Origin: Malus domestica
Taxonomy: Eukaryota; Streptophyta; Magnoliopsida; Rosales; Rosaceae
DNA length: 64,000 nucleotides
NCBI RefSeq assembly: GCF_042453785.1
Contig: NC_091673.1
Location: 22,806,501 to 22,870,500, forward strand
Direction: 5' to 3'
Each line of letters begins with the position of its first letter. Position 1 is the first letter of the stretch. Both the position numbers and the translations under genes were made by a program. Below the pieces are notes generated by a model that did not search any database, was not told where the DNA came from, and saw only the letters and a program-made list of their open reading frames with translations. Shown here one piece after another: positions 32,972 to 63,184 of this stretch.

Positions 32972-33244
32972 ATGGCTGTTTGAAATGGTACCAGGCATGG
33001 TATTTTAGGTTGATTTAAAATGCACAAAGATTGAAACTTTATGACAGAATATTGCAGAGAAAAGAATGAGCTCAGAGAATAGAGAATGTTCAGAGTTCTT
33101 GATTGAAATCGAAGAGGGAATTTACAAGCCTATATCACTAAATCAGTCAAATGCTCAAATCCTATTTTTTAGGGAGCAAGGACTGATCTCTAGCCATTCA
33201 AGCCATCGGAGGCTACGATCCTTCCACTTGGGAGAGGATCGAAT

Positions 33245-33699
33245 TGATAAAGTTTGTTTGTTTTGTGTTTTGATTGAGTGTTTGAACCGGTTTCTTTTGA
33301 TTAGAATGACAAAGAATGGAGAGAGCTTGGAGGTTGGATACTGGCTGTGCTAAAGAATGTAGCAGCCCTGATTGATTAAGTAAGGTGAGATTTTACAAGG
33401 GTATGGTGCATTGCCATCACCCATACTTGTTAAAAAAAATGATTGACAAGAGACTTTAACAACCATTTAAGCATTACTACTCCAGATTACATCCTAACCC
33501 TTCATTTGGGGGTTAAGTGATTTAATCTGGAGTGTACACTTGTCACTCACACACTTACACCCACATTTAAACAAAATAGCCGTTGGAGACTAAAACCCTT
33601 CATCTTCTTTCTTCTTCTTCGATGCAAATAACACCCTTTGCTCGGGAGCCCCTTGCTACCTTCGACCCCTCGACTCCAAGAGTTGGTTAGCTTCCAACA
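33245..33699 (-). repeat. 3' LTR of copia 3
   Basis: 455 bases from TGATAAAG to CCAACA, followed by CTCCCTT, the complement of the polypurine tract. Confidence 0.9.
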
Positions 33700-33831
33700 C
33701 TCCCTTCTAAACTGCTTCTGGGAGTCAATCCGAGCAAACCCCTCAGGTAATTGAATCTCTCCTTCGGTAGTGCTTTTGTGAATATGTCTGCGATCTGATC
33801 TTCTGTGCTGCAATAGATTAGCGGTGTTGTC

Positions 33832-36672: not shown

Positions 36673-37816
36673 TTTTCCAGTGAAGTTTGTGTCGATGTCA
36701 ATGAGTAATGACTCATGTGGTTGCTGCAGCCACTATCAATGTACCACACTTCATTGTTTCTCTCCATTTTTGCATTGAAAGCACAGAACACATTTGCTTC
36801 TTCTTCCACTTGATTTGCACAGTTCACTTGTTACACATTCTTTGATCTGCAGTCTTTCATAATGTGCCCAAACCTGTTGCATTTGTGACATCTAGGCTTG
36901 TCCTTGAACCAACACTCCCCAAGATGGAATTTATCACAGTGCTTGCATTGTTGCTTGGTTCTTGGACCTGCATTGATGTTGCTGCCTTGGTTAGGTCTTG
37001 AGTTGTGATACCCTTTTCCTTCCCATTTCTTGTTCTTGCCCTTCCACTGTGGTTTCTGATTGCTTGCACTAGCTTGACTACTAGATCCAACATTGAGTGA
37101 TTGAAAGACTTTCTCAGGTGCAGAGTCAGCATGCCTCTCGAATCTTTGATCAAAAGCTCTTAAGGATGCCATTACATCGTGTACACTAAGAGTTTCAGTG
37201 TCTTTGGTTTCTTCTATAACACTCACTATTGAATCATAGGGTTTAGTCAAACTAATCAATAGTTTTTGGACAACTCTTTCATTAGGCAGTTCCTCACCAT
37301 ATGTTTTCATCTTGTTTACAACATCAAACAGTATAGTGAAGTAGTCTTTTAACAGCTCATTTTCCCTCATTCTTGTATACTCAAAATCTCTTCTAAGGGA
37401 CTGAAGTTTTACCTTTCTAACGTTAATGTCTCCTATGTACTATTGCTGTAAAACTTCCCAAGCTCCTTTTGCAGTCTCTTCATTTGCTATCCTCGGAAAA
37501 TGGTGTCTGAGACAGCCCCATCCGATTCTGCTTCAGCGTTTTGAGTTGTGTTTCTGTGAGATCCTTCTCTAGAGCATCGATCTCCAAGTGCTCTAGCATC
37601 CTCCATCCGATTCTGCTTCAGTGTTTTGAGTTGTGTTTCTGTGAGATCCTTCTCTAGAGCATCGATCTCCATCTCAGGTAGTTCATACCCGTGTTGAACC
37701 ATATCCCACATATCATAGGATTTGAAAATGGTTGTCATTCTTATTCTCCAAAAATCATAATTCTCCCCATCAAAGACTGGAGCTTTTAGCTCACTGCTAC
37801 TGCTGGATCCCTTCAT
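36673..37816 (-). pseudogene. Copia 3 gag and protease start, broken
   Basis: Gag starts at 37816 (MKGSSSSSELKAPVFDGENY). A direct duplication with a 95-base period (37522-37616 and 37617-37711, about 66 bases near identical) throws it out of frame. A TAG near 37440 follows. The rest of gag (37370-36831) is open and ends in two Cys/His clusters, CKHCDKFHLGEC and the knuckle CHKCNRFGHIMKDC. The protease motif WYIDSGCSNHM is at about 36745-36712. A small deletion just after it shifts the frame relative to pol. Confidence 0.82.
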
Positions 37817-37943
37817 TTCAGGGTAGTTTGTTGATTGTTGTTGTAGAAGACACTACGTTGGTGCTCCCGGAAATCTCTATTTGCACAGATTACGCCCAAA
37901 CTTCTCTTTTTTTTTTTAGATCAGTAACAAAGCTCTGATACCA

Positions 37944-38399
37944 TGATAAAGTTTGTTTGTTTTGTGTTTTGATTGAGTGTTTGAACCGGTTTCTTTTGAT
38001 TAGAATGACAGAGAATGGAGAGAGCTTGGAGGTTGGATACTGGCTGTGCTAAAGAATGCAGCAGCCTTGATTGATTAAGTAAGGTGAGATTTTACAAGGG
38101 TATGGTGCATTGCCATCACCCATACTTGTTAAAAAAAAAAGATTGACAAGAGACTTTAACAACCATTTAAGCCTTACTACTCCAGATTACATCTTAACCC
38201 TTCATTTGGGGGTTAAGTGATTTAATCTGGAGTGTACACTTGTCACTCACACACTTACACCCACATTTAAACAAAATAGCAATTGGAGACTAAAACCCTT
38301 CATCTTCTTTCTTCTTCTTCGATGCAGACAACACCCTTTGCTCGGGAGCCCCTTGCTACCTTCGACCCCTCGACGCCAGGAGCTGGTTAGCTTCCAACA
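37944..38399 (-). repeat. 5' LTR of copia 3
   Basis: 456 bases from TGATAAAG to CCAACA, next to the primer site at 37933-37943. About 97 percent identical to the other LTR by eye. Confidence 0.9.
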
Positions 38400-38616: not shown

Positions 38617-39175
38617 ATGGCACAGTACATTTTTTCTTCCAAAATTTTGAGCCTGCTAGAGTGACTCAAATAGGAGAAACCCTCCAAGTCTGAGAGTACC
38701 ACAAAATTAGCATCAGGTTTTTCCAGCTTTCGTTTTAACGTAACTCTGCCACAGAAAGTAGCTAGTGAATGGAGCTGAAGCGCACAAGGAACGTGTAATA
38801 GCAGCAAAACAGAAGGCCAACTCTAAATCTTAGAAGAGGCGGGACTTGCATTGGAAGCAACTGCGGCAGCAAGCCTCAAAAGGCAACAATTTTGGCAGCT
38901 GACTAAGCAGTTGAGAAGTTTTCTTAGATTAAGCTGCAACCATCCGTAAATGCAGATTTCGCATCCAACAATGCTCAGTTCATATCTTAGCTGCTGTTTT
39001 ATTTATGATTTCTCTTGCTTTTCTCTAATATTTAGTTAACCTAGCTTGTTTCAACAAGATTTAGAACGGCCTTCTATTTGTTTTAATTTGTTTTAATTTT
39101 CATGAAGGCTAGTTACTAGATGGCCACCTCTTTAACATATATATAGTCGTTTGTATATGTATATATATGTACATC

Positions 39176-39222
<47 letters not shown>

Positions 39223-39407
39223 TGTTACGATTCGCTAACTTTTCTTCTGGAGACAAACGACTCATACTAGTCTAGATGTTTTGGGGGTATGTAAATTTTG
39301 CTAATTTAGGAATAACAAGTAGGTGGTAGTTACAACTACATGCTCCAATGCAAGAAAGGAGTATTTGGGGAGGCACAAAGACAAGATGGTTAGGGAATTT
39401 GGTTATA
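38617..39407 (+). repeat. Unit B, distal end
   Basis: Continues unit B after the nested LTR: relic segment (38620-38950), TATATATAGTCG region, (AT)n(GT)n at 39170-39220 and about 70 bases of what lies upstream of the USP kinase in unit C. It then breaks off at 39407, so unit B never contains the kinase itself. A short unrelated linker (39408-39492) follows before unit C. Confidence 0.75.
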
Positions 39408-39673
39408 GGGGTCTTTTGATATGGGTCCAATTGGACTAAAAATTGGACCTATTTCAAAAATCAAAAGTCACTAAAAATTGATATGGGTTTTGTTTAAACC
39501 CACCCCGTTAAGCACACTTAAGTAGATGGAGAAATGATTGATACCTTATTTTTGGTAATGATAGTGAGATTAAATTTTTTAAACCAAATGATATGGTGGT
39601 TAATGATTATGACATCACTTAAGCATTGATTAACGTATTGATTTAAAATTTTAGTGTTTCTAACATTATCCTT

Positions 39674-39766
39674 TATTTATATAAAGAGCCGGACGGTCAA
39701 ATGACGTGGAATAAGTTGGTGTGTATAAGGGTAATTTCATTGTTTTGTCAAAAGCGTAACCCTAAA
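39674..39766 (+). promoter_or_regulatory. Promoter region of zinc-knuckle copy C
   Basis: TATTTATATAAAG at 39674-39686, TGACGTGG at 39702-39709 and telo-box AACCCTAAA at 39758-39766, followed by a CT-rich leader before ATG 39823. Spacing equals that of copies B and D. Confidence 0.58.
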
Positions 39767-39822
39767 AGGTAAATCTCCAAACTCGTGCAATCTCTCTGAG
39801 TCTCTCTCGCACAGACGAAGCC

Positions 39823-40766
39823 ATGATCCGGGTACCCAGAGACGACGCCAAGCGCGGAGGCAGAGGCGGAGGCAGGGCCAATTGGCTCGCGCGATCAGAG
39901 TCCGGGCGGGGGAAGAATCCAGCCCAACCGGCGGAGCTCCGAGGTGAGATCCGGATTTGTCTTGGTGTATATATATGCGTTTGGTTTCTGTTTTAGGGTT
40001 TGTAAATTCTGCATATTAACCAAAAATGTTGCAGCTTAATTGCTGTTAAACCCAAAATATATGCGTTTGATGAAACATATCAAACAAAAAATTGATGTTT
40101 TTCGTCACTGTGCGAGAATTACCCTTAAATTAATTACATGCCTAGTTTTTTGTTTCGATAGAATTCCCTTTTTATATTGAAAATATGTATCTATTTTTGG
40201 TGGCCCTCTTAATTTGACCTGTTAATTAGCTGAGTAAATATATCTAGTATTAATTAATTTATGTGCAACAAACAGATGAGAAGAAAGAAACAAAAGCTGT
40301 CGAAAGCTCTATGAGTAAACTCCAACTTGATGATGATACTCCTACTGCAAAGAAGAAACGTTACCGTGAGTCTAAGAAATGCCATTCTCAGAATGAGCAT
40401 TGTGCAGTTTGCCTTATGGACGGCCACCACCAATATCTGTGTCCCTACCGGGAAAGTGTCCCGTTGGGCGTAACTAAAGTTGGAGAGGGCTATATACTAA
40501 TGTGTAGGACTTGTGGTTTTGTGGGTAACGTCTGCCTTCATGGCCGCTCTTATGCTCGTCCCTATAGGCGGTGTTATATGCGTCTGAAACATGGGTACCC
40601 AAGCCACGAGGAAGTGGAGCAAATCAGGGCAAGACAGAGAGAAATGGCTGAAATGTCCAGGGCACGAGTGGAGAGAGGTGAACCATCCTCATTGGATGAT
40701 ACCTCTTCCGATTCCTCTTCTGATACCTCTTCCGATTCCTCTTCTGATTCCTCTTCTGAGATATAA
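39823..40766 (+). CDS. Zinc-knuckle protein, copy C (203 residues, intact)
   Basis: Exon 1 is 39823-39943 and exon 2 is 40276-40766, joined in phase 1 (G|AT, Asp41). The donor is GTGAGATCC; the acceptor follows ATGTGCAACAAACAG. Exon 1 gives a basic, Gly-rich N-terminus (KRGGRGGGRANW). Exon 2 gives a Lys-rich segment, then Cys83-X2-Cys86-X4-His91-X4-Cys96, a textbook CCHC zinc knuckle that usually binds single-stranded nucleic acid. A second cluster, Cys117-X2-Cys120-X6-Cys127-X-His129, may bind another zinc. An Arg/Glu-rich helix follows, and the last 20 residues are a Ser/Asp repeat that could be a CK2 phosphorylation target. No known gene name fits; role unknown, probably nuclear or RNA-related by inference. 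Intact frame and promoter suggest an active gene. Confidence 0.75.
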
Positions 40767-43180
40767 TCGTAATGAAGCTTAGGATTGGAACATGCGGTGG
40801 CTGCAGATGTTGGATTGCCTTTTCTGTTCATTCATGGCGGATAGATACTACTGTGTTGGTTGTTTTCTCGTGTGTTTAATTACGTTCTTGGAATAGCTAG
40901 TTGCGCATGTTGGTCGGATTTCCTTTGCTTGTAGGCTTGTACTGCTTGTCTTGGAATAACTATGAAACGAATCAACCGCTATCAAATACTAATCTCACCC
41001 GAATTCATATAACGTAGAATCTCACCGGAAGACTAATCCAATACTGCAACCACAAAGATATTGGAATTAATATTCCTAGTATCAATGAAGAAATGGGACT
41101 AAGTTGCCTGTATGCTTGCCTAAATTCTTCCGAAAGTTATCTGCTTTCTATCAATTGTATGTTCGCATATGCATATAAAGTGTTGTATAGCCTTTGTAAA
41201 TTAGCTTGGAGTTGTTTAAAAACTTTAGTCTTATGAATTGCCAATTTAATTAGTACATCCAAGCAATCATCTAAGTGAAAATTAGGTCCTTAAACTATTT
41301 ATTTTTTTAGAAAAATCAGTCCTTGAATTATAAAAATATGCCAATTACATCCCTAATATTATAGTCAAAACTACTATATTCAATTTTCCGTCAATTTAAG
41401 TCACGGTACTTGCATGTAATACATATTGGAAGGTAGATAGTAGTTAACTTTGGAGGATAAATTAGTAGTTTTTCATAAGAAATAGTGTAAGTTAACTTTG
41501 GAGATTAAATTAGACGTTAGATTCGCAATCTATATGAAATGTTAAGGGTTTATAGGCGAGAAAATTGTGATATTACACTTTTAAGGTGTATCAAGTGATT
41601 TAAGTTGACGAAAAATTGGACAAAATAGCTTTGAATATAATAGTAGGGATCAAATTAGCAATTTTTAATGAATTTAGGGACTTATTTTATTAAAAAAAAC
41701 AATTCAGGGACCTAATTTTCACTGAGGTAATAGTATTAAATCAGCACTTCACCCTTATTTTTATAGAAGAATGAACACATGTTTCGGGTGCAATGCAAAG
41801 TCACAACACTTTCAACGTTCCAGAACTAGGACGTTGTCCCAATGGTTTTGCCCCATATGCATGTAATAGACGATATTTTCCGTTGCAAATTTCAATTTAT
41901 CTGTCGATTGATGAATTGATTAATTGAAGCCAGGACTGATTATGAGTTGCAATCTTCAACCGAGATTCTTCACTTATTTCCATGGAGAATCAGTGCCGGT
42001 GAAGACGTTAAGTTATATATTGTCAGATCTGTGATGGAATGGAACGCTGAAGATTTCACGTCATCTGTGAAATTCTGTTGTATAACATGAAGCAGTGAAA
42101 TTGAATATGGTTGACTAATATTGTTGCTAAAATGTTGTTAATCGCAGAAACTCTAGCGTAAATTGATGGAAAGCATCAACGATCGTATACTCTTGGGCTG
42201 TTCATATCAGCATTTTTTTTCAACTTCAACTAAGTAGATCTCTAATTGTTCAGTTAGTTTATCGTACGTACTATTATTATAGCTAGATTAGCAGTCATGA
42301 ACCTAGACCTCGGGTTTACAGAAATCATGGCCACCCACCGTTTGATCTTATTCCAACGGTAGTAAGGCCAAGTACTGATGGCACAGTACATTTTTTTCTT
42401 CCAAAATATTGAGCCTGCTAGAGTGACTCGAATAGGAGAAACCCTCCAAGTCTGAGAGTACCACAAAATTAGCATCAGGTTTTTCCAGCTTCCGTTTTAA
42501 CGTCACTCTGCCACAGAAAGTAGCTAGTGAATGGAGCTGAAGCGCACAAGGAACGTGTACTAGCAGCAAAACAGAAGGCCAACCCTAAATCCTAGAAGAG
42601 GCGGGACTTGCATTGGAAGCAACTGCGGCAGCAAGCCTCAAGAGGCAACAATTTTGGTAGCTGACTAAGCAGTTGAGATGTTTTCTTAGATTAAGCTGCA
42701 ACCATCCGTAAATGCAGATTTCGCATCCAACAATGCTCAGTTCATATCTTAGCTGCTGTTTTATTTATGATTTCTCTTGCCTTTCTCTAATTTTTAGTTA
42801 ACCTAGCTTGTTTCAACAAGATTTAGAACGGCCTTCTATTTGTTTTAATTTGTATAAATTTTCGTGAAGGCTAGTTACTAGATGGCCACCTCTTTAACAT
42901 ATATATAGTCGTTTGTATATGTATATATATGTACATCTATATATATATATGTGTGTGTGTGTGTATTGTTACGATTCGCTAACTTTTCTTCTGGAGACAA
43001 ACAACTCAGACTCGTCTAGATTTTTTGGGGGCATGTAAATTTTGCTAATTTAGGAATAACAAGTAGATGGTAGTTACAACTGCATGCTCCAATGCAACAA
43101 AGGAGTATTTGGGGAGGCACAAAGACAAGATGGTTAGAGAATTTGGTTATACTATCGTTCCCTCCACACATTCTTATCTC
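40767..43180 (+). repeat. Unit C, downstream flank and relic segment
   Basis: Full-length version of the unit flank: AT-rich sequence to about 42240, the conserved relic segment at 42240-42660, the TATATATAGTCG region, (AT)n(GT)n near 42930-42965, and the region leading to the USP kinase. No clear gene is seen. It serves as the empty-site reference for the MITE and solo LTR in unit B. Confidence 0.75.
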
Positions 43181-43410: not shown

Positions 43411-43584
43411 ATGGGAAGAGGTCAAACACAAAAGAAGGCGGGGGAGGTGGTGGCTGTGGCAATAGACAATGACAAGGGCAGCCAACATGCTCTCAAATGG
43501 ACTATTGATAGTCTTGTCACCAGAGGTCAAGCTCTCACGCTGCTCCATGTTAGACAAAGAACCGCAATTCCCACCCAAAGTACA

Positions 43585-43615
<31 letters not shown>

Positions 43616-43635
43616 ATATGTGTGTGTGTGTGTGC

Positions 43636-43681
<46 letters not shown>

Positions 43682-46600
43682 GCATGAATGAATAAGATGA
43701 TGATGATGATGATCGTAATTTACTAATGTATGTCACCAGCCACAGAGGAGGTTGAAAGGGCTCAAGCCAAAGAGTTGTTTCTACCATTCCGCTGCTTTTG
43801 CACGAAAAAACTTGTGAGCAATGCTTCTTCCCTTCATAAAAGTGATAGTGTATTTCCTATCCCGCTCCATGAACAGTTGAGCGGAATCCCTCGTTTCACA
43901 ACGTGATTTGTAGTTGTACTGCTGATTTGATTTTTGCAACAGCTAAAATGCAATGAAGTCATGATCGAGGATAAAAACATAGCAAAAGCACTGGTAAACT
44001 ATGTTGTCAATAATTCAATTGACATTTTGGTACTTGGTGCGCCGTCAAGAAGCGGCCTTCTCAGGTACTGATTTCTTCTCCAAGTTATATCTCAGTTCAT
44101 ATGCACCAACACTGTACAATTCATCAGAAAAATAGTATCAAAGAGAACAAGCATCAATCGTAAAATGTATAAATCATTCATTTATTTGAATGGAACTATA
44201 ACTGTAGATAGTTAAGTATTACATCTTTAAAATCCAATGAACTAAGAAAACTTTCATAGATCTGTCTCAACTAATACCAGCTTACATACGCCAAAAATTT
44301 GATGGTTTGAGAAATCATTTATTCAAGATCTGGTTCCGCACGTTGTAGTCTTACCTCAGTTTTTTCTTCTGTAGATTTTTATGTTCAAAAATATATGTAT
44401 TTCATGTGTTGTAAGAGTTAACAACTAACTCATATATATGAGTAGTAAAGAACCGGTTACAAACCCATCCCTATACAAAACTCTTGGGACAACACAAAGA
44501 TAAAAAACTGAGAGGACTTATAATACTAACAGCTCCATAACCTTCTCCATGCTGCCCGTGCTTGTCTTTGTCGAAGACCACACATGATGTGAAGATAGAA
44601 AGCTGACAGGACAAGAATATATGCTGCCCGTGCTGCATGTGCTTGAGTTTATTGTACAATATTCAAGAGTTGCTGCCCGTGCTTGTCTTTGTCGAAGACC
44701 ACACATGATGTGGAGATAGAAAGCTGACAGAACAAGAATATATGCTGCCCGTGCTGCATGTGCTTGAGTTTATTATACAATATTCAATGTCCATACTTCT
44801 TGGTTCCAACACCCCCCTCAAGCTGGATCAAGGGGATTTATTGAGCCAAGCTTGCCCAGAAGACGATGAAACTGAGCAGATGGTAGTGCTTTGGTGAATA
44901 AGTCAGCCAATTGATCATAACTGCGAGTGAACACAGTGTGAATGACCTGAGATTGAACCTGAGATCGAACAAAATGACAATCCACCTCTATATGCTTCGT
45001 TCTTTCATGAAAGACAGGATTAGCAGCAATGTGCATGGCTGCTTGATTGTCACACATAAGTGGTATGGAGTTGGAACAATGAAACCCTAGATCAGATAGA
45101 AGACCTTTGAGCCAAATAAGCTCACATGCAGTGGCTGCCATTGCACGATACTCAGCTTCTGCACTAGACCGAGCAATGACCTGTTGCTTCTTGCTTTTCC
45201 AAGTTACAATATTGCCTCCAACAAACGTGCAATAGCCTGTCGTGGACCTTCTATCAATGGCATTGCCTGCCCAATCAGCATCAGTGTAACCACTTATGCT
45301 TGTGGATTGGTTATTTTGCATGAGAATTCCCCGTCCAATGGACCCTTTAAGATAACGAAGGATCCGTTTGACAATGTTGAGATGATCAACGGTGGGAGAA
45401 TGCATAAATTGACTAACTATGCCCACTGCATAGGTGATATCAGGACGAGTAATGGTGAGGTAAATTAACTTACCAACCAGTCTTTGATAATAACTCACAT
45501 TATGAAGAGCTTCCCCATACATAGTAAGCTTGAGCTTGCTGTCAATTGGAGAGGTTGCAGGTTTGCAATCAAGAAGATTTGTCTCCTTGAGAAGATCAGT
45601 TACATATTTTCTTTGATTTAGGAATAGTCCTTTGGATGAGGTAGCCATTTCTATGCCAAGAAAATACTTAAGCCTCCCAAGGTCTTTGATGGCAAAGGTC
45701 TCTTGTAGAGATTGCTTTAAGGCTGCAATCTCAGTTTCACTTTCACCTGTGATTATGAGATCATCCACATAGATAAGAATCATCAATCTTCCTCTCATTC
45801 CTGTTCGAACAAATAGAGAGGAATCTGCATTGCTTCTAAGAAAACCAGCCCTTTCCAACACTGAGCTGAGCTTGGCGTACCAAGCTCTTGGAGATTGCTT
45901 TAAACCGTAAATAGCCTTGTGAAGTTTGCAGACCATACCATTTTGGGCTTGAATATAACCTGGTGGAGGTTGCATGTACACTTCCTCTTGTAATTCTCCA
46001 TGTAGAAATGCATTTTTTACATCCATTTGATACAAGGACCAACCAGAATTAACTGCCACAGACAAGAGAACTCTGACAGTGTTCATCTTGGCTACTGGTG
46101 CAAAGGTTTCTTTGTAATCCACTCCAAAAGTTTGAGTGAATCCACGTGCAACGAGTCTGGCTTTGTGCCTTTCAATTGAGCCGTCAGCTTTGAATTTTAC
46201 CTTGAAGATCCACCTGCTGCCAACAGCCTTTTTTCCAGGTGGTAAATGAACAAGACTCCAGGTTTTGTTGTCACTCAAGGCTTGTAATTCCTCTGACATT
46301 GCCTTCCTCCACTTAGATGATTGGTTTGCCTCCTGAAAGGTGCTAGGTTCAACATTATTTGCAACTTCAGTGAGAAATGCAATGTGAGACTTTGAGAAAC
46401 AGTTGTAATTGAGAGTTTTAGTGTGAGGATGCCGTGAGGCATAAGTAACATAGTCCATCATCTTAGCTGGTGGCTGTCTTGTTCGAATGGGATATCTCCT
46501 AGCTTCTAGAAGTGGTGTTGTTGGTAGAGAGGGGCTTGGGCCTGTCTGAACTTCACCTGTATGCTCACTGATGGATTGAGAGTGTAGTTGGCCCACACTT

Positions 46601-49600
46601 GGAATCAAGTCATCTTGAACTCCTTCAATGATTTGACCATTTGAGATGTGATCTTCTGCTAGTGTATCATGGTCAGTGACTCTTGGTAAGGGAAGCAAAT
46701 CACTCAAGGTCTCATTCTCATTAATATGAGTCTCATTGCTTTTATAGTAGGGCATTGTTTCATCAAAACGAACATCCCTTGACACAATACATTTCTTTGT
46801 GATAGGGTCAACACATTTGTATCCCTTCTGAGTTGGTGAATACCCAACAAAAATGCACTTCACTGCTCTAGCTTCCAATTTATCACGATGAGGTGCTTGC
46901 ACATGGACAAAGCAGCTGCAACCAAACGTTTTAAGATGCGCCAAGTTGACTGCCTTATTGTTTAGAGTTTCATGTGGAGTTTTGAACCCCAATACTTTAC
47001 TTGGAAGTCTATTAATTATATAGGTAGCAGTGAGAACAGCATGTGACCAATATCTTTTGGGAACATTCATATGCAGCATTAGAGATCGAGTTTTTTCAAG
47101 CAGATCTTTATTCTTCCTTTCTGAGACCCCATTTTGTTGGGGTGTCCCTACACAACTGGTTTGGTGAACAATCCCTTGTGAACTCAAGTACTGAATCATG
47201 TTATTGGACAGAAACTCAGTGCCATTATCTGACCTAAGCACCTTAATGTTTGAGTTGTATTGAGTTTGTACAAGTTTATGGAAATCTTTAAATATGCAGA
47301 AAACCTCACTTTTTGATTTCATAAGGTATAGAAAGGTAGTACGAGTGAAATCATCAACAAATATGACAAAATATTTGTAACCATCCATTGATTCAATTGT
47401 AGGTCCCCAAACATCCGTGTGTACTAACTCGAATGGTTTACATGTCTTAAAAACAGAAGTGACAAAAGGTAGTCTGACTGACTTTGAAAAATGACATGTT
47501 TCACACTCAAGGGGTGATTGACAAAAACCGGGAAACAATTTTGACAAAACAAGTTCAGATGGGTGAGCAAGTCTTTGGTGCCAAAGTTGTTGATGTTCAA
47601 AATACTTGGTTCCAGCTTGAAACGTTTTAGGCATGACTGAGTTTTTGCACAGGTAGTAGAGACCATTAAGGAAGAACCCTTCACCAATCACTTTCTTGGT
47701 GATGACATCCTGAAAAACGACGTTGTTTGGTGAGAAAATGGCATGGCAGTTTAGGGAGCTTGTTATCTTTCCTACTGAAAGTAATTGAAAAGGAAATGAG
47801 GGAACATATAGGGCTAATGACTCATTATTGTTTGTGAGTATACTAGCTTTTCCCTTACCCAAAACTGACACATTTTTTCCATTTGCAACTGACACTAGTG
47901 AGGGGTTTTTGAATGCTTGAAAATTATGCAGATTTGAAAGTTTGTTTGTCATGTGATCAGTGGCACCTGAGTCAATTATCCAACAATCATATTCAGTGCT
48001 TGTTTGTAATGCAGTGGAGAAAGCATTGAGAATACCTGAAACCTCTCCTTGTTCTGCAGATTTGTTATTGGCAAGAAATCCTGCAAACTGCCCCAGCATG
48101 GCAGCGTGTTCTCCATCCTCCTTTTGTAAGTTTGATGCAGTATTCCCATGATCCTTGGTTTGCAAGTACGCAACAAATTCTTTTATAAGTGTCACAGGAC
48201 TTGTAGTGAAGTCCATGGATCCAAAAGAAACCCCAGAGGTGACGTTTGCTGCATGATGACTCTTGAAATGGCTTGTTTGTGAAGGTTTTGATGGAATCAT
48301 CTTCCCATCTTTGGTAAATTTGGGCTTTAACTCGGGATGAAGGATCCAACACTTTTCTTCCACGTGACCAACACCATTACAGTAGGTACACTTGAGATGG
48401 GAATTCTTACCTTTGTATATTTTGTGGTTTGCAACATAGGCTAGAGCTTCAGTTGGCCTTGAGCTAGACTCACCATTCATGGCTTTCTTCCTAGCTTCTT
48501 CACGTTGGACAATACCACACACACTTTTGAATGTTGGCAGTTCTTGACTCATAAGTATATGGCTTCTGAGATCCTCGTACTCAGAACTTAAGCTTCCCAA
48601 GAGTTGGTATATCTTATCTTCCTCCCCTCTCTTTAGTAGCGTATTTGCATCTGTGGTGTGTGGAAGATACATATCCAGTTCATTCCACATGGTTTTGAGC
48701 CTGCCAAGGTGTTGTACAAAGGACTTCCCATTTTGTTGAATGCATGCAATGTCTTTCTTCAGTTGGAACACCCTTGCATAATTGTTTTGATTTCCATACA
48801 TGTCCTTCACCGAGTTCCACAAATCTTGTGAGGACTCTGAGTAGCTAAAAATTTCTGCAACATGCTTCTCCATAGTATTGAGAAGTAAGGACATGACGAA
48901 TTGATCTTTGCAGAGCCAAGTCTCATAGGTTGGTGAGGTGATATCAGGAGCTTCGATGCTTCCATTTATAAAACCAATTTTTCCTTTTCCTCCTAGAGCA
49001 AGTGAAACTGCACGAGACCAAGGTAGGTAGTTGAACTCATTCAGCAAGGCTGAACACAAACGCTAATTGGTGTTAACCTCAGTGTCTGAAAAATTTGAAC
49101 AAGAATTACGGGAGGTTTTATCCTCAACATTTACTGAATCTTCTTCAGCCATGGCTCAAGGTTGAAGGAGAGAAGCAGCGGAAAGAAATGGCCAGAGACA
49201 GGTTAAAGAAGGACCCGCTCTGATACCATGTAGATTTTTATGTTCAAAAATATATGTATTTCATGTGTTGTAAGAGTTAACAACTAACTCATATATATGA
49301 GTAGTAAAGAACCGGTTACAAACCCATCCCTATACAAAACTCTTGGGACAACACAAAGATAAAAAACTGAGAGGACTTATAATACTAACAGCTCCATAAC
49401 CTTCTCCATGCTGCCCGTGCTTGTCTTTGTCGAAGACCACACATGATGTGAAGATAGAAAGCTGACAGGACAAGAATATATGCTGCCCGTGCTGCATGTG
49501 CTTGAGTTTATTGTACAATATTCAAGAGTTGCTGCCCGTGCTTGTCTTTGTCGAAGACCACACATGATGTGGAGATAGAAAGCTGACAGAACAAGAATAT

Positions 49601-52600
49601 ATGCTGCCCGTGCTGCATGTGCTTGAGTTTATTATACAATATTCAATGTCCATACTTCTTGGTTCCAACATCTTCTCGGAAGCCATCAATTACGCATGCA
49701 TCATAATTATATCAATCTCGTCACAGATTCAAAACAACAGACGTTCCAAACACTGTCTCAAGAGAGGCACCGAGTTTCTGCACTGTGTATGTCATTGGCA
49801 AGGGAAAGATATCATATATGCGAGCTGCTACCACTTCACTGTCCCAGAAAGCTTACTTGCCTAATCAAAAACAGCACCAAACAAACAAAGCTTCTGACAC
49901 AAATGATACGCAATTCAGCCACAACCAGCAATGCAGAGGTTGGCCAGATTCGGTTTTTTCTTTTTTTTTTTTTTAGGTCGAAAGTTCAGATTATGTTCTA
50001 GCATCTGTTATTTCCCACCTCACGTCTGGTTTCTTGTCATTACTCAAACAAATTTCTTTGACCAATACAGCATGGGAGAGGACGCAGTATCCACCACAAA
50101 GCCAGCAAGATGAAATCCAAATCAAGTAAGCTCTGGTACATTTATTGTCTGGGGAACAAAAGGCATAGACAATGATGCTTAAAAAAATTAACTATGGAAG
50201 AGGTGTAGATACCGATTAGTTAATTCAGCTCCTTATTTTGGTTGTACGTTGTAAGTATGTACGTACCTCCATTTAAGCAGTATTAAAATGATTAGCTTAT
50301 AGGTATGTGGCCCTTCACTAAGAAATTTTTGCCGATGCTTTCATTCAACCACTATCTGCATTTCCAGGCAAAGCACACCCGAGCATTCCCTAGATGAAGT
50401 TTCAGTTAACGTGTTAAAGGGCTTCCAAATGAATAGCCTGGATACTTATGTAGAACAACTATATTACTGAAATAGAGCATGTGAGTACTCAACTGAGGAG
50501 AGGACTAACCTAATAAATATGATGCAGGTCACCATTCACAAGAGGAGGAGCTTCAGCTAACAAATCATATGAGCTCTCGTCAGATACTGACATATCATTT
50601 GTGAGTAGTGGAAGGCCGAGTGTGGATCACATGTTTCCTTCTTTCTATGATGATCTGGACTCAGGACCTCGGCTTTCAATCAGCCCAGAGATTGATAGCA
50701 GAAGCTCTACATCATCTTACTCGTCCGGGATGAACAACAGGAGCTCTACCTCATCTTACTCCGGACATAAGTTCATTGACATGAGCACTTCACCATATGA
50801 CTTCTCATCATCCTCAATTGAAAGTGGAAACTCATGTTCACAACTGAATTTTGTAAGACAATTTTTCTGCACAGTAAACTTGAAGCACAACCAAGCTACA
50901 AGCTTTGAAGCATGCCTCCAACTACAAACTTGACAGCAGAAACTAATATACCACAAATGATTATCCGAGCCAGTTCTGGTGTCCCAATATCATTCCTTCA
51001 ATAATTGATACCTAAATTTACCAGTTTTGAGTGGTTTTAGTTCCACAATCCAAAAGAAGCTTTATTTTTATAAAGCATACATGCAGGTATAGTTCAGAGT
51101 ATTAATACGTAATTTTCTTGAAAATAATAGGATGAAATGGAAGCTGAGATGAGGAGGCTCAGGCTAGAGCTCAAGCAAACAATGGACATGTACAGTACAG
51201 CCTGCAAGGAGGCACTCACAGCAAAACAGAAGGTATTGATGCAAAACCTTTTATTTGATGAACTATAAATCTTGGGTTCAGAACAACTATTTAAGCATAA
51301 ATTCTAATAATATATCATCGCAGGCAACCGAACTCCACCGGTGGAAATTTGAAGAGGAACAGAGATTAGAACAGGTACGACTAGATCAGGAAGCTGCATT
51401 GGCACTGGCAGAGAATGAGAAATTGAAATGTATGGCAGCCATGGAGGCTGCAGAAGCAGCTCAAAGGATCGCAGTAATGGAAGCACAGAAAAGGAGGAAT
51501 GCAGAAATGAAAGCCTTTAAAGACGCTGAGGAGAAGAAGAAGGCAATAGAAGCAAAAACATATGATTTCATGTTCAGGAAATACACAATTGAGGAGATTG
51601 AAGCAGCAACAAATAATTTTTCAAGCGTTCACAAGATTGGGGAAGGAGGCTATGGGCCGGTATACAGAGGTGAACTAGACCACACACCAGTGGCAATAAA
51701 AGTTCTACGTCCAGATGCAGCTCAAGGACAGTCACAGTTCCAGCAAGAGGTTAGCGACACTGCCAATAGGAAACTTTACCTATCTTATAAATTACATACT
51801 TTCGTCAGATATTTAGCACATAAATGAAATAACCAAGGAAAAGGACTATTATTAGGCACTTCACATCTTGAATTTGATCATGAAGGAATTGAAGATTGAA
51901 CTTTCACTTTGTTTCCAAAACCGGTAACATATTGTTCGAAAACAGCAGCAGCCACATCGATTATAAAGAGGAACACGAGTATAAGAAATTGCTCATGCAT
52001 CAAACAAAGATTTTAATCGATATATTCATCAAGTGATATTCATGCATCCAAAAAAAGTTTATACTTTACACCAATCTGCCAATCCTCTCAAGTCCGGATA
52101 GTTCAAATAGAAAGGTGCTTCTATATTTATAAGCCATTTTATTGGTTGTGTATTATATATCGGGAAACTCTTAATTATCCAGGTTCAAGTATTGTGTTGC
52201 ATCCGCCATCCAAACATGGTTCTCCTTCTGGGAGCATGTGCCGAGTATGGTTGCCTAGTCTATGAATACATGGCTAATGGAAGCTTAGAAGACCGTCTCC
52301 TACAGCGAGGTAACACCCCAGTTATTCCTTGGCAGCTAAGGTTCCAAATAGCCGCAGAAATTGGCACTGGACTTTTGTTCCTTCATCAGACCAAGCCAGA
52401 ACCCATTATACACCGTGACCTGAAACCGGCAAACATTTTGCTAGACCACAACTACGTGAGCAAGATTAGTGATGTAGGTTTGGCCAGGCTTGTCCCTCCA
52501 TCGGTAGCAGATTCTGTCACTCAATATCATATGACATCAACAGCTGGGACACTTTGTTACATAGACCCAGAGTACCAACAAACTGGGATGCTTGGAGTAA

Positions 52601-53235
52601 AATCTGATATCTACTCACTTGGCGTCATGTTTCTACAACTAATAACGGCCAAGCCACCAATGGGTTTGACTCATCACGTTCAGAGGGCTATTGAGAAAGG
52701 GACTTTTGCTGAGATGCTTGACCCTGCTGTTCCTGACTGGCCAGTTGAGGAAGCTCTAAAGTTTGCCAAGCTAGCTTTACAATGTGCTGAACTGCGACGA
52801 AAAGATAGACCGGATCTTGGTAAAGTTGTGCTACCTGAGCTTAACAGATTAAGAGCACTAGCCAACGATAGGAAAAACAGTGTCTTCCTTGGTGGTGGTG
52901 GTGGAGAATGTTCACCAAGACAAAGCTCGACTCCCACAATACAAGTGAGTTGCATAACATGGTCCTGCCATTGCTCTTGCCTCTTATATAGCATGCTCGA
53001 ATTCTGTTTAATCACATACAATGTACAGCTAATATAACCTGCGAATGCTTCACAATTGTTGGTTCTCTTTTACTTTTGCATATATAATCAACACTAACTT
53101 ATTTGTTAATTTTTTGGTCTTTTCTTTTTTCAGGATGTAATCAGTGACGGCGATCTATCACAGCCTGGTTATGAAAGCTCAAGGAGTCGCTCAAGCACAT
53201 CATCTTATCCTGGAAGAAAAATCTTTTTGGATTAG
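43411..53235 (+). CDS. USP-domain protein kinase (RLCK-IX type, no U-box)
   Basis: Exons: 43411-43579, 43740-43813, 43943-44064, 49727 to about 50125 (end uncertain), 50528-50852, 51131-51232, 51324-51749, 52183-52944, 53134-53235. All mapped junctions are GT-AG and in phase. The N-terminus is a universal stress protein fold (VVAVAIDNDKGSQHALKW; LVLGAPSRSGLLR; FKTTDVPNTVS). A Ser-rich linker (SFVSSGRPSVDHMFPSFYDD) and a long coiled coil follow. The Ser/Thr kinase has GEGGYGPV, VAIK, HRDLKPANILL and DVGLARL; the DVG in place of DFG is usual for this family. It ends FLD with no U-box, unlike its PUB relatives. A young copia sits in intron 3 (44065-49726). A poly-T run near 49960 makes the exon 4 frame uncertain. 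Confidence 0.82.
43587..43678 (+). repeat. (TC)n, (TG)n and (TA)n run in intron 1
   Basis: Compound microsatellite inside intron 1 of the USP kinase: TC repeats to 43612, TG repeats near 43619-43635, then TA repeats at 43641-43678. Unit D keeps only short TC and TG parts. Confidence 0.85.
44370..44811 (-). repeat. 3' LTR of copia 2, with internal 121-bp tandem duplication
   Basis: 442 bases, TGTAGATTTT to TTCCAACA. A 121-base unit starting GCTGCCCGTGCTTGTC is present twice (44551-44671 and 44672-44792) with a few differences. Confidence 0.92.
44818..49059 (-). CDS. Copia 2 gag-pol polyprotein, 1413-codon frame
   Basis: Polyprotein of a Ty1/copia element. Gag covers residues 1-220 (NEFNYLPWSRAVSLAL). 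The knuckle CTYCNGVGHVEEKC is at 224-237 and protease DSGATDHM at 363-370. The integrase zinc site is His494, His499, Cys519, Cys522; the catalytic triad is Asp549, Asp611, Glu647 with the DD35E spacing. Reverse transcriptase has Asp1013 and YVDD at 1097-1100; RNase H has Asp1260, Glu1303 and Asp1337. All catalytic residues are present. The natural start is probably ATG at 49152-49150, 31 codons upstream in the same frame, with TAG at 49065-49063 between. Translation must bypass that stop or start downstream, so activity is uncertain. Ribosomal frameshifting is not needed. Confidence 0.88.
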   Translation of the reverse strand: MCSALLNEFNYLPWSRAVSLALGGKGKIGFINGSIEAPDITSPTYETWLCKDQFVMSLLLNTMEKHVAEIFSYSESSQDLWNSVKDMYGNQNNYARVFQLKKDIACIQQNGKSFVQHLGRLKTMWNELDMYLPHTTDANTLLKRGEEDKIYQLLGSLSSEYEDLRSHILMSQELPTFKSVCGIVQREEARKKAMNGESSSRPTEALAYVANHKIYKGKNSHLKCTYCNGVGHVEEKCWILHPELKPKFTKDGKMIPSKPSQTSHFKSHHAANVTSGVSFGSMDFTTSPVTLIKEFVAYLQTKDHGNTASNLQKEDGEHAAMLGQFAGFLANNKSAEQGEVSGILNAFSTALQTSTEYDCWIIDSGATDHMTNKLSNLHNFQAFKNPSLVSVANGKNVSVLGKGKASILTNNNESLALYVPSFPFQLLSVGKITSSLNCHAIFSPNNVVFQDVITKKVIGEGFFLNGLYYLCKNSVMPKTFQAGTKYFEHQQLWHQRLAHPSELVLSKLFPGFCQSPLECETCHFSKSVRLPFVTSVFKTCKPFELVHTDVWGPTIESMDGYKYFVIFVDDFTRTTFLYLMKSKSEVFCIFKDFHKLVQTQYNSNIKVLRSDNGTEFLSNNMIQYLSSQGIVHQTSCVGTPQQNGVSERKNKDLLEKTRSLMLHMNVPKRYWSHAVLTATYIINRLPSKVLGFKTPHETLNNKAVNLAHLKTFGCSCFVHVQAPHRDKLEARAVKCIFVGYSPTQKGYKCVDPITKKCIVSRDVRFDETMPYYKSNETHINENETLSDLLPLPRVTDHDTLAEDHISNGQIIEGVQDDLIPSVGQLHSQSISEHTGEVQTGPSPSLPTTPLLEARRYPIRTRQPPAKMMDYVTYASRHPHTKTLNYNCFSKSHIAFLTEVANNVEPSTFQEANQSSKWRKAMSEELQALSDNKTWSLVHLPPGKKAVGSRWIFKVKFKADGSIERHKARLVARGFTQTFGVDYKETFAPVAKMNTVRVLLSVAVNSGWSLYQMDVKNAFLHGELQEEVYMQPPPGYIQAQNGMVCKLHKAIYGLKQSPRAWYAKLSSVLERAGFLRSNADSSLFVRTGMRGRLMILIYVDDLIITGESETEIAALKQSLQETFAIKDLGRLKYFLGIEMATSSKGLFLNQRKYVTDLLKETNLLDCKPATSPIDSKLKLTMYGEALHNVSYYQRLVGKLIYLTITRPDITYAVGIVSQFMHSPTVDHLNIVKRILRYLKGSIGRGILMQNNQSTSISGYTDADWAGNAIDRRSTTGYCTFVGGNIVTWKSKKQQVIARSSAEAEYRAMAATACELIWLKGLLSDLGFHCSNSIPLMCDNQAAMHIAANPVFHERTKHIEVDCHFVRSQVQSQVIHTVFTRSYDQLADLFTKALPSAQFHRLLGKLGSINPLDPA
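49217..49228 (-). other. Primer binding site of copia 2
   Basis: The plus strand reads GCTCTGATACCA, the complement of TGGTATCAGAGC, directly beside the right LTR. Initiator methionine tRNA is the expected primer. Confidence 0.9.
49229..49670 (-). repeat. 5' LTR of copia 2
   Basis: Appears identical to 44370-44811 base by base, including the internal 121-base duplication, which implies a very recent insertion. Confidence 0.92.
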
Positions 53236-58861: not shown

Positions 58862-59269
58862 CAACTAGGGGTGATTCAGTATGGGATCCCAAATCGAAAA
58901 ATGGGATTTTGAATTCCAAACCGAAAATTTTTTAGATTGGAATTTGAAGACCAATCCCGAACCAAAATTTTGGTATTTCTAATTTTTCGGGATTCCCGAA
59001 ATGTTTTTGGTATTTTAGGATGGATCAAGATTGAATTTTCGGTTTTGAGCTTTTAGGTTGAAATTTGAGATTTTTGGGCTATGGACTTAAATTTGGACTT
59101 TTCGCCTAAAATTTTGTTCCCCAATTTCATATCAATTGAAATTTAGGCTTTGTACCTCATACCAATTTGAAATTCCATACCAATTGAAATACCAAGTCAA
59201 ATTGATGTTCCAAAGTTCCAAAATACTTAATTTCATACTTCTATTTCTAATATAGTCTACTATAAAACC
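58862..59269. mobile_element. Left part of another small DNA element
   Basis: Starts AGGGGTGATTCAGTATGGGA and is full of CCAAATTTCGG-like subterminal motifs and GGGATTCCCGAA inverted segments, as in small hAT elements. It runs into unit D at 59270 without a matching right end, so unit D duplication may have truncated it. Confidence 0.38.
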
Positions 59270-59326
59270 ACTTAAACATTGATTAACGTATTGATTTAAA
59301 ATTTTAGTGTTTCTAACATTATCCTT

Positions 59327-59419
59327 TATTTATATAAAGAGCCGGACGATCAAATGACGTGGAATAAGTTGGTGTGTATAAGGGTAATTTCATTGTTTTG
59401 TCAAAAGCGTAACCCTAAA
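59327..59419 (+). promoter_or_regulatory. Promoter region of zinc-knuckle copy D
   Basis: TATTTATATAAAG at 59327-59339, TGACGTGG at 59355-59362 and telo-box at 59411-59419. Unit D begins only about 60 bases upstream of the TATA box, so any more distal control elements of unit C are missing here. Confidence 0.58.
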
Positions 59420-59475
59420 AGGTAAATCTCCAAACTCGTGCAATCTCTCTGAGTCTCTCTCGCACAAACGAAGCC

Positions 59476-60419
59476 ATGATCCGGGTACCCAGAGACGACG
59501 CCAAGCGCGGAGGCAGAGGCGGAGGCAGGGCCAATTGGCCCGCGCGATCAGAGTCCGGGCGGGGGAAGAATCCAGCCCAACCGGCGGAGCTCCGAGGTGA
59601 GATCCGGATTTGTCTTGGTGTATATATATGCGTTTGGTTTCTGTTTTAGGGTTTGTAAATTCTGCATATTAACCAAAAATGTTGCAGCTTAATTGCTGTT
59701 AAACCCAAAATATATGCGTTTGATGAAACATATCAAACAAAAAATTGCTGTTTTTCGTCACTGTGCGAGAATTACCCTTAAATTAATTACATGCCTAGTT
59801 TTTTGTTTCGATAGAATTCCCTTTTTATATTGAAAATATGTATCTATTTTTGGTGGCCCTCTTAATTTGACCTGTTAATTAGCTGAGTAAATATATCTAG
59901 TATTAATTAATTTATGTGCAACAAACAGATGAGAAGAAAGAAACAAAAGCTGTCGAAAGCTCTATGAGTAAACTCCAACTTGATGATGATACTCCTACTG
60001 CAAAGAAGAAACGTTACCGTGAGTCTAAGAAATGCCATTCTCAGAATGAGCATTGTGCAGTTTGCCTTATGGACGGCCACCACCAATATCTGTGTCCCTA
60101 CCGGGAAAGTGTCCCGTTGGGCGTAACTAAAGTTGGAGAGGGCTATATACTAATGTGTAGGACTTGTGGTTTTGTGGGTAACGTCTGCCTTCATGGCCGC
60201 TCTTATGCTCGTCCCTATAGGCGGTGTTATTGGCGTCTAAAACATGGGTACCCAATCCACGAGGAAGTGGAGCAAATCAGGGCAAGACAGAGAGAAATGG
60301 CTGAAATGTCCAAGGCACGAGTGGAGAGAGGTGAACCATCCTTATTGGATGATACCTCTTCCGATTCCTCTTCTGATACCTCTTCCGATTCCTCTTCTGA
60401 TTCCTCTTCTGAGATATAA
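59476..60419 (+). CDS. Zinc-knuckle protein, copy D (203 residues, intact)
   Basis: Exon 1 is 59476-59596 and exon 2 is 59929-60419, with the same splice sites and phase as copy C. The CCHC knuckle (CAVCLMDGHHQYLC), the second Cys/His cluster and the Ser/Asp tail are all kept. Differences from C include Trp for Met near CYWRLKHGYPIH, Ile for Ser two residues later, Lys for Arg in EMSKARVE, and Leu for Ser in EPSLLDD, the last shared with copy A. No disabling change is seen. Function unknown, as for copy C. Confidence 0.75.
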
Positions 60420-61757
60420 TCGTAATGAAGCTTAGGGTTGGAACATGCGGTGGCTGCAGCTGTTGGATTGCCTTTTCTGTTCATTCATGGCGGATAGATA
60501 CTACTTTGTTGGTTGTTTTCTCGTGTGTTTAATTTCGTTCTTGGAATAGCTAGTTGTGCATGTTGGTCGGATTTCCTTTGCTTGTAGGCTTGTACTGCTT
60601 GTCTTGGAATAACTATGAAACGAATCCACCGCTATCGAATACTAATCTCACCAGAATTGTTCAGTTAGTTTTCGTACATATTATTTCCTTTGCTTGTACG
60701 TATTATTTCCTTTGCTTGTACGTACAATTATTAGTAAGGCCAAGTACTGATGGCACTGTACATTTTTTCTTCCAAAATTTTGCGCCTGCTAGAGTGACTC
60801 GAATAGGAGAAACCCTCCAAGTTTGAGAGTACCACAAAATTAGCATCAGGTTTTTCCAGCTTCCGTTTTAACGTCACTCTGCCACAGAAAGTAGCTAGTG
60901 AATGGAGCTGAAGCGCACAAGCAACGTGTACTAGCAACAAAACAGAAGGCCAACCCCAAACCCTACAATAGGCGGGACTTGCATTGGAAGCAACTGCGGC
61001 AGCAAGCCTCAAGAGGCAACAATTTTGGCCGCTGACTAAGCAGTTGAGATGTTTTCTTAGATTAAGCTGCAACCATCCGTAAATGCAGGTTTCACATCCA
61101 ACAATGCTCAGTTCATATCTTAGCTGCTGTTTTATTTATGATTTCTCTTGCTTTTCTCTAATATTTAGTTAACCTAGCTTGTTTCAACAAGATTTAGAAC
61201 GGCCTTCTATTTGTTTTAATTTGTTTAAATTTTCGTGAAGGCTAGCTACTAGATGGCCACCTCTTTAACATATATATAGTCGTTTGTATATGTATATATA
61301 TGTACATCTATATATATGTGTGTGTGTGTGTGTGGGGTTACGATTCGCTACCTTTTCTTTTGGAGACAAACGACTCAGACTCGTCTAGATTTTTTGGGGG
61401 CATGTAAATTTTGCTAATTTAGGAATAACAAGTAGGTGGAAGTTACAACTGCATGCTCCAATGCAACAAAGGAGTATTTGGGGAGGCACAAAGACAAGAT
61501 GGTTAGGGAATTTGGTTATACTATCGTTCCCTCCACACATTCTTATCGCCCTGGCTCTAGAATATTTAAGAGAGAGAGAGAGAGAGAGAGAGTTGATGAG
61601 AATATAGCACAGCTTCAGTGCCAAGGCGTTGCCAAGGAGAGCGTATGACGGTGGTTCTCCGTCGGGGATTTGTTTCGTTCAGAGCTGGAGACATTTCTAC
61701 GTACGCATGCAGGTTAGAGTTTGATGGAGAGTTGAATTAATTCACAGAAGGTGAGAA
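60420..61757 (+). repeat. Unit D, downstream flank, short form
   Basis: Jumps from CTCACCAGAATT to GTTCAGTTAG near 60655, lacking the 2-kb stretch of unit C. It then has a small local duplication of TATTTCCTTTGCTTGTACGT (60684-60722). The relic segment follows at 60730-61075; here its plus-strand frame (EAHKQRVLATKQKANPK and on) has no stop until 61041. The (GA)n leader of the kinase copy ends the stretch. Confidence 0.72.
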
Positions 61758-63184
61758 ATGGGAAGAGGTCAAACACAAAAGAAGGCGGGGGAGGTGGTGG
61801 CTGTAGCAATAGACAATGACAAGGGCAGCCAACATGCTCTCAAATGGACTATTGATAGTCTTGTCACCAGAGGTCAAGCTCTCACGCTGCTCCAAGTTAG
61901 ACAAAGAACCGCAATTCCCACGCAAAGTACATTCTCTCTCTCTGTATGTGTGTGTGTGTGTGTAAATGCATGAATGCATAAGATGCTGATGATGATCGTA
62001 ATTTACTAATGTACGTCACCAGCCACAAAGGAGGTTGAAAAGGCTCAAGCCAAAGAGTTGTTTCAACCATTCCGCTGCTTTTGCACGAAAAAACTTGTGA
62101 GTAATGCTTCTTCCCTTCATAAAAGTGATAGTGCATTGCCTATCCCGCTCCATGAACAGTTGAGCGGAATCCCTCGTTTCGCAACGTGATTTGTAGTTGT
62201 ACTGCTGATTTGATTTTTGCAACAGCTAAAATGCAATGAAGTCATGATCGAGGATAAAAACATAGCAAAAGCACTGGTAAACTATGTTGTCAATAATTCA
62301 ATCGACATTTTGGTACTTGGTGCGCCGTCGAGAAGCGGCCTTCTCAGGTACTGATTTCTTCTCCAAGTTATATCTCAGTTCATATGCACCAACACTGTAC
62401 AATTCATCAGAAAAATAGTATCAAAGAGAACAAGCATCAATCGTAAAATGTATAAATCATTCATTTATTGGAATGGAACTATAACTGTAGGTAGTTAAGT
62501 ATTACATCTTTAAAATCCAATGAACTAAGAAAACTTTCATACATCTGTCTCAACTAATACCAGCTTACATACGCCGAAAATTTGATGGTTTGAGAAATCA
62601 TTTATTCAAGATCTGGTTCCGCACGTTGTAGTCTTACCTCAGTTTTTTCTTCTCGGAAGCCATCAATTACGCATGCATCATAATTATATCAATCTCGTCA
62701 CAGATTCAAAACAACGGACGTTCCAAACAGTCTCAAAAGAGGCACCGAGTTTCTGCACTGTGTATGTCGTTGGCAAGGGAAAGATATCATATATGCGAGC
62801 TGTTACCACTTCACTGTCCCAGAAAGCTTACTTGCCTAATCAAAAACGGCACCAAACAAACAAAGCTTCTGACACAAATGATACGCAATTCAGCCACAAC
62901 CAGCAATGCAGAGGTTGGCCAGATTCGGTTTTTTCTTTCTTTTTTTTTTAGGTCGAAAGTTCAGATTATGTTCTAGCATCTGTTATTTCCCACCTCACGT
63001 CTGGTTTCTTGTCATTACTCAAACAAGTTTCTGTGACCAATACAGCATGGGAGAGGACGCAGTATCCACCACAAAGCCAGCAATAAGGAGCATGCCTCCA
63101 ACTACAAACTTGACAGCAGAAACTAATATACCACAAATGATTATCCGAGCCAGTTCTGGTGTCCCAATATCATTCCTTCAATAA
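61758..63184 (+). pseudogene. USP kinase copy D, kinase domain deleted
   Basis: Exons 1-3 (61758-61926, 62023-62096, 62226-62347) match copy C and are intact. Exon 4 (from 62704) has lost two bases within FKTTDVPN-T, shifting the frame. Two large deletions follow: copy C 50110-50905 is missing at 63074, and copy C 51013-53790 at 63193, which removes the linker, coiled coil and entire kinase. Only the start of the protein, a USP fold, could be translated. Intron 3 has the empty site for copia 2. It may be an expressed USP-only remnant, but a pseudogene is more likely. Confidence 0.8.

What the first reader, a model, noticed from the sequence alone, without database searches (positions are those of the whole stretch)
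44370..49670. Very recent copia insertion, antisense in intron 3 of the USP kinase
Both 442-base LTRs look identical, the 5-base duplication TCTTC is perfect, unit D holds the empty site, and the 1413-codon frame keeps every catalytic residue. The only defect is TAG at 49065-49063 between the likely start and the rest of gag. The family may be active, and the 5.3-kb insert could alter kinase splicing or silencing.
Basis: seen in the sequence. Interest (0 to 1): 0.75.

Follow-up and report, generated by a model that had tools for sequence, protein, structure and literature searches.

The report
Young copia element in kinase intron
A recently inserted, nearly complete but gag-disrupted copia retrotransposon sits backwards in the third intron of an apparently intact plant stress-protein kinase gene; a clean but ordinary example of a well-known kind of event.

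Summary
A 5,301-bp Ty1/copia LTR retrotransposon (44370-49670, minus strand) has two identical 442-bp LTRs, a 5-bp target duplication (TCTTC), and a PBS and PPT abutting the LTRs. Its open 1,413-codon frame has gag, integrase and RT by Pfam, protease and RNase H by motif only. The uninterrupted site survives in a paralogous unit. TAG at 49065-49063 cuts gag after 29 codons. The insert is in intron 3, 305 nt from the donor and 56 nt from the acceptor. The unit with the empty site is a truncated, frameshifted copy. The insertion is younger than about 0.3 of the unit duplication (95% bound); years depend on an unknown rate. Family activity, polymorphism, and effects on splicing or silencing are untested: the genome search did not complete and none of the collections used is of plants. 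A nearly intact frame is expected of any young copy; the TAG argues against autonomy. New member of a known kind, low to moderate interest.

The parts
44365..44369 (.). target site duplication TCTTC, left copy
44370..44811 (-). 3' LTR of the element, 442 bp
   Evidence: identical to the other LTR
44812..44819 (-). polypurine tract GAGGGGGG abutting the 3' LTR; overlaps the stop codon of the polyprotein (44818-44820)
   Evidence: read from sequence
44818..49059 (-). open frame, 1413 codons plus stop: rest of gag, protease (motif), integrase, RT, RNase H (motif)
49063..49065 (-). in-frame TAG that cuts gag after 29 codons
49066..49152 (-). 29 codons from the likely gag start ATG (context GAGCCATGGCT) to the TAG; no copia Pfam family on its own at E 0.1
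49211..49228 (-). primer binding site TGGTATCAGAGC..., abutting the 5' LTR
   Evidence: tRNA-Met type by a recalled tRNA end, no tRNA was compared
49229..49670 (-). 5' LTR of the element, 442 bp
49409..49650 (-). two tandem 121-bp units inside the LTR (LTR positions 21-141 and 142-262; 7 differences), present in the other LTR too
49671..49675 (.). target site duplication TCTTC, right copy
43411..44064 (+). exons 1-3 of the USP kinase gene (43411-43579, 43740-43813, 43943-44064)
   Evidence: Usp domain
44065..49726 (+). intron 3, 5662 nt, holding the insert (356 nt in the unit with the empty site)
49727..53133 (+). exons 4 to 9 with their introns (49727-49938, 50071-50125, 50528-50852, 51131-51232, 51324-51749, 52183-52944)
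   Evidence: kinase domain
53134..53235 (+). exon 10, coding to 53232, then stop TAG
62633..62672 (+). empty target site in the paralogous unit, exact 40-base junction

Best explanation
A Ty1/copia LTR retrotransposon was copied by reverse transcription and integrated, in antisense, into intron 3 of one copy (unit C) of a duplicated USP-kinase gene, after units C and D had separated. Its LTRs have gained no difference since. Shown: structure, target duplication, empty site, open host reading frame. Inferred: the copy was made with Gag from a sister element or before the TAG arose; the host gene is probably still spliced over the intron, with a possible loss of efficiency because the insert ends 56 nt before the acceptor, and possibly with heterochromatin over the intron.
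For: LTRs 442/442 identical and TCTTC on both sides; exact empty junction in unit D; seven copia Pfam families in order; integrase stretch matched to a PDB integrase, 7z0h, E 1.1e-16; insertion younger than the duplication with posterior 0.9999 and ratio under about 0.30 at 95%, taking equal rates and no conversion; ten exons in frame, 782 aa with Usp and Pkinase; a second copia in the same window keeps 13 LTR substitutions.
Against: LTR identity can also come from gene conversion between the LTRs or from assembly, neither of which I could test. CpG is already low in the element (o/e 0.29, against 0.66 and 0.45 in two host flanks and 0.54 in the window; the older copia has 0.18), which may be inherited from the donor. 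The gene model was chosen by hand from frame and splice consensus, without cDNA; a second donor for the last intron (52881) also keeps the frame.
Confidence: 0.93

Rival explanations
1. The insertion is old and the LTRs were made identical by gene conversion or by collapse in assembly.
For: LTR identity alone cannot exclude it; no reads were available.
Against: Only one stop was found in over 4.2 kb of frame, the TSD is perfect, the empty site is in a paralogue 2.3% diverged, and another copia in the same window keeps 13 LTR substitutions.
Confidence: 0.05
2. The TAG is not a defect: it is read through or by-passed, and this copy is fully autonomous.
For: The frame behind it is open for 1,414 codons; stops that are read through are known in retroelements (recalled).
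Against: It stands 29 codons into gag, not at a gag/pol border; the bases after it (CGT TTG) do not resemble the tobamovirus-type read-through context (recalled); the first ATG behind it is codon 57, inside the Retrotran_gag_2 match.
Confidence: 0.06
3. The insert has knocked out the kinase by blocking intron 3 splicing or by early polyadenylation.
For: About 5.3 kb added to a 356-nt intron, ending 56 nt before the acceptor; on the kinase strand the element has two AATGAA/ATTAAA signals, one GTAAGT and five acceptor-like strings; an intronic copia with a functional LTR polyadenylation site is documented at Arabidopsis RPP7 (passages of PMC7529245).
Against: The element is antisense; on the kinase strand it has 0 AATAAA against 6 on its own strand, though 0 is not significant (12% of 200 Markov simulations). 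In human genes, young antisense ERVs show suppressed splicing into the element (passages of PMC1794541). The ten exons remain in frame, which at this age is expected either way.
Confidence: 0.2

Closest known systems
Plant Ty1/copia LTR retrotransposons (Pseudoviridae, recalled name)
   Same: LTRs, 5-bp TSD, PBS, PPT, one frame with gag, integrase and RT in copia order
   Different: gag is cut by a TAG; the LTR holds a 121-bp tandem duplication
COPIA-R7 in intron 1 of Arabidopsis RPP7 (PMC7529245, passages seen)
   Same: copia element in an intron of a gene that belongs to a gene cluster
   Different: RPP7 is an NLR receptor gene, here a kinase; no expression or chromatin data here; the orientation of COPIA-R7 was not found in the passages seen
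BARE2 of barley (PMC3735527, passages seen)
   Same: copia element that cannot make its own Gag
   Different: [quoted passage not shown] here one copy, a nonsense codon, no helper known

Membership tests
Ty1/copia LTR retrotransposon | integrase before RT in one frame | tested here: met
   rve 541-640, RVT_2 931-1172
Ty1/copia LTR retrotransposon | protease before integrase and RNase H after RT | tested here: inconclusive
   motifs in the right order, but no Pfam family named for either at E 0.001
Ty1/copia LTR retrotransposon | paired LTRs starting TG and ending CA | tested here: met
Ty1/copia LTR retrotransposon | 5-bp target duplication, with an empty site to compare | tested here: met
Ty1/copia LTR retrotransposon | PBS next to the 5' LTR and PPT next to the 3' LTR | tested here: met
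   which tRNA it fits is recalled
Autonomous Ty1/copia element | uninterrupted gag-pol frame from the start codon | tested here: not met
   TAG after 29 codons
Copia lineage (Ale, Ivana, SIRE, Tork and others) | position in RT, RH and INT trees | not tested
   no reference set on hand; the PBS type speaks against Bianca and TAR, and the lack of room for a 3' extra ORF against SIRE (criteria from PMC6317226 passages; sequence)
BARE2-like gag-defective parasitic subfamily | defect shared by many copies that were mobilised in trans | not testable with these tools
   The genome search did not complete
USP-domain kinase (host gene) | N-terminal Usp and C-terminal kinase domain in one protein | tested here: met
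   Usp 14-138, Pkinase 453-706 of 782 aa; no U-box among matches to E 0.01

The most novel reading that the evidence does not exclude
The TAG is shared by many young copies: a gag-defective copia subfamily that spreads on the Gag of a sister family, as BARE2 does, and one of its antisense intronic copies now regulates the only copy of this USP kinase in the window that still has its kinase exons.
Probability: 0.07. Interest if true: 0.5.

Novelty: new member of a known kind. Interest (0 to 1): 0.2.

Why it matters
It is a clean natural experiment: one apparently intact kinase gene with an antisense intronic insertion that can be dated against a duplication, and a paralogue that preserves the empty site. 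If the insert is polymorphic, carriers and non-carriers could be compared for intron splicing and methylation. As sequence alone it adds one more young copia insertion to very many.

Tried and rejected
Relatives elsewhere, each with one RT stretch only: viral contigs, 3 stretches matched a pattern and 0 of 3 were confirmed; genome contigs, 1 of 20 confirmed, a contig in a cyanobacterial bin at 53% identity, too distant to help with family or age; plasmids by tblastn, 4 records, all under 60% identity. Six LTR, PBS and U3 strings in papers: 0 papers. Papers with all five of copia, intron, universal stress protein, kinase and insertion polymorphism: 0. These two searches are no basis for saying that the family or locus is unpublished. 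Structure prediction was not run: the fold of these domains was not in question. Further copies of the LTR in the window: at E 1 only the two LTRs, their internal repeats and matches of 13 to 24 bases. The differences between LTRs of the second copia were first counted with wrong ends and recounted; its CpG figures had the same fault and were redone. The 29-codon piece was translated in a wrong frame; replace it. An earlier count said that unit D lacks exons 5-10; one search shows that it keeps most of exon 5 and lacks 6-10. One search looked for exon landmarks on the plus strand only; one search repeats this on both strands with the same result.

Full report
What was claimed and what is there. 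The finding describes a copia insertion at 44370-49670. The two LTRs are 44370-44811 and 49229-49670, 442 bp each, identical at all 442 positions, starting TGTAGA and ending CCAACA on the plus strand; TCTTC stands on both sides. The element lies on the minus strand. Read from 49228 down, the sequence starts TGGTATCAGAGC directly at the LTR edge, the usual plant tRNA-Met type of primer binding site; the tRNA end is recalled, and no tRNA was compared. A polypurine tract GAGGGGGG abuts the other LTR. Passages of PMC6317226 say that 93.4% of the plant LTR elements surveyed there have 5-bp duplications, and that most copia groups use tRNA-Met.

Coding. ORF listing gives a minus-strand frame 44818-49059 of 1,413 aa, opened at a TTG. 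Pfam finds, in order, Retrotran_gag_3, Retrotran_gag_2, Pol_BBD, gag_pre-integrs, rve, SH3_retrovirus and RVT_2, all seven above their curated cut-offs; no family named for a protease or RNase H appears at E 0.001. The integrase stretch matches 26 distinct PDB sequences at E 0.01, best 7z0h (E 1.1e-16; Ty1 integrase, recalled), with foamy-virus integrase (PFV, 3l2q) at 8.5e-11; the two alignments shown, 7z0h and 3dlr, align the D, D and E. An RT stretch found no solved structure at E 0.01. Protease, RT and RNase H residues therefore rest on motifs: DSGA, MDVKNAF, YVDD, DADWAG, SSAEAEY, CDNQA, ERTKHIEVD (the assignment of motifs is recalled). The likely start is ATG 49152-49150, in the context GAGCCATGGCT; 29 codons later comes TAG 49065-49063. 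The Retrotran_gag_3 match begins at position 12 of 48 of the profile, at residue 3 of the listed frame, so the TAG lies at or inside the edge of that domain. The next ATG is codon 57 behind the TAG, inside the gag_2 match. This copy is therefore probably unable to make complete Gag.

Age. The paralogous unit D has the uninterrupted site: the 40 bases around the junction occur exactly at 62633, and the joined flanks differ from D at 31 of 1,366 ungapped columns. The 84 gap columns not counted are 18 of overhang at one end and the rest mainly in simple repeats. With zero LTR substitutions in 442, and taking equal rates and no conversion, the insertion is younger than the C-D split with posterior 0.9999 and at most about 0.30 of its age at 95%. 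In years the 95% bound is 0.26 million at 1.3e-8 per site per year, 0.48 million at 7e-9 and 1.36 million at 2.5e-9 (the rates are recalled and the species is unknown). The second copia of the window, 33245-38399, shows 13 substitutions and 1 indel between its LTRs, so identity is not an artefact of the assembly as a whole. CpG is low in the element (o/e 0.29; its LTR 0.43) compared with two host flanks (0.66, 0.45) and the window (0.54), but higher than in the older copia (0.18; LTR 0.33). This may reflect a methylated donor and is no sharp measure of age.

The nearly intact frame is weak evidence. A random single change in the frame makes a stop in 592 of 12,717 cases; at the 95% bound of age about 0.65 stops are expected in the whole frame. 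An almost intact frame is thus expected of any copy this young. One stop is compatible with an origin after insertion, during reverse transcription, or in the donor; the data do not separate these.

Host gene. Exons 43411-43579, 43740-43813, 43943-44064, 49727-49938, 50071-50125, 50528-50852, 51131-51232, 51324-51749, 52183-52944 and 53134-53232 join in frame into 782 aa without a stop, followed by TAG. I chose the borders by hand so that each intron begins GT and ends AG and the frame continues; another donor for the last intron, after 52881, also keeps the frame. The protein has Usp (E 1.3e-11) and Pkinase (E 2.8e-41) domains and no U-box among matches to E 0.01. Intron 3 is 5,662 nt; the insert starts 305 nt after the donor and ends 56 nt before the acceptor. 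In unit D the same intron is 356 nt. Unit D has a frameshift in exon 4 and, by tblastn of the 782 aa against the window at E 0.01, matches residues 1-205 only; no match to the kinase domain occurs outside unit C. Landmarks of exons 1, 3 and 4 (30, 20 and 19 bases, up to 4 substitutions, both strands) occur only in C and D. Unit C is then the only copy in this window that has its kinase exons.

Effect on the host gene. On the kinase strand the element has 0 AATAAA, on its own strand 6; the kinase strand also has two AATGAA/ATTAAA signals (own strand 1), one GTAAGT (own strand 1), and five acceptor-like strings (own strand 17). For AATAAA on the kinase strand the mean of 200 order-2 Markov simulations is 2.1 and 12% of them have none, so the absence is suggestive at best. 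Human intronic retroviruses show an antisense bias and, for young antisense elements, suppressed splicing (passages of PMC1794541). At Arabidopsis RPP7 an intronic copia affects polyadenylation through H3K9me2 and EDM2 (passages of PMC7529245). Both are analogies. No expression data were available.

LTR structure. The LTR contains two tandem 121-bp units (positions 21-141 and 142-262 in element orientation, 7 differences), upstream of a TATATA at 374. Both LTRs carry the same two units, so the duplication is older than this insertion. Tandem repeats that act as enhancers in the U3 of other copia elements are recalled; no function was tested, and U3, R and U5 were not mapped.

Family. The PBS type speaks against Bianca and TAR, and the stop codon lying in the polypurine tract leaves no room for the 3' extra ORF found in 74% of SIRE elements (criteria from passages of PMC6317226). 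The lineage was not determined. The nearest parallel for the defect is BARE2 of barley, which cannot make Gag and is packaged into BARE1 particles (passages of PMC3735527). Whether this TAG defines a subfamily could not be tested, because the genome search did not answer in seven tries.

Verdict. A real, cleanly documented, recent antisense intronic copia insertion in an otherwise apparently intact kinase gene. The kind of event is well known; regulatory effect and family activity remain open.

Noticed in passing
33245-38399: A second copia element with both LTRs, on the minus strand: LTRs of 455 and 456 bp with 13 substitutions and 1 indel, TSD CGAAT, RT 42% identical to that of the first; longest frame 946 aa.
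   Followed up: partly
14718-17112: Relic of a third copia element on the plus strand, with integrase, RT and RNase H stretches at 34-41% identity to this one; the integrase pieces lie in two frames.
   Followed up: partly
59261-64000: Unit D is a decayed kinase copy: 2-bp deletion in exon 4, exons 1-4 and most of 5 present, no match to the later exons.
   Followed up: yes
17382-20029, 29295-32976, 38617-42949, 59261-61520: Repeated copies of the region upstream of the kinase, mostly over 92% identical in the longer matches; kinase-gene exons were found only in units C and D.
   Followed up: no
44550-44787 and 49409-49646: A tandem duplication of about 120 bp within each LTR, with short inverted repeats such as CACATCATGTG.
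   Followed up: partly
L002 (NZ_CP115454.1) and L003 (NZ_CP115302.1): Two linear 'plasmid' records of rhizosphere Kitasatospora and Streptomyces, 4.6 and 5.2 kb, with 2 and 1 annotated genes, each with a copia-like RT at about 40% identity; possibly eukaryotic contamination filed as plasmids.
   Followed up: partly
L001: A contig of a cyanobacterial (Trichormus) metagenome bin encodes a copia-like RT at 53% identity; perhaps DNA of a plant host.
   Followed up: no
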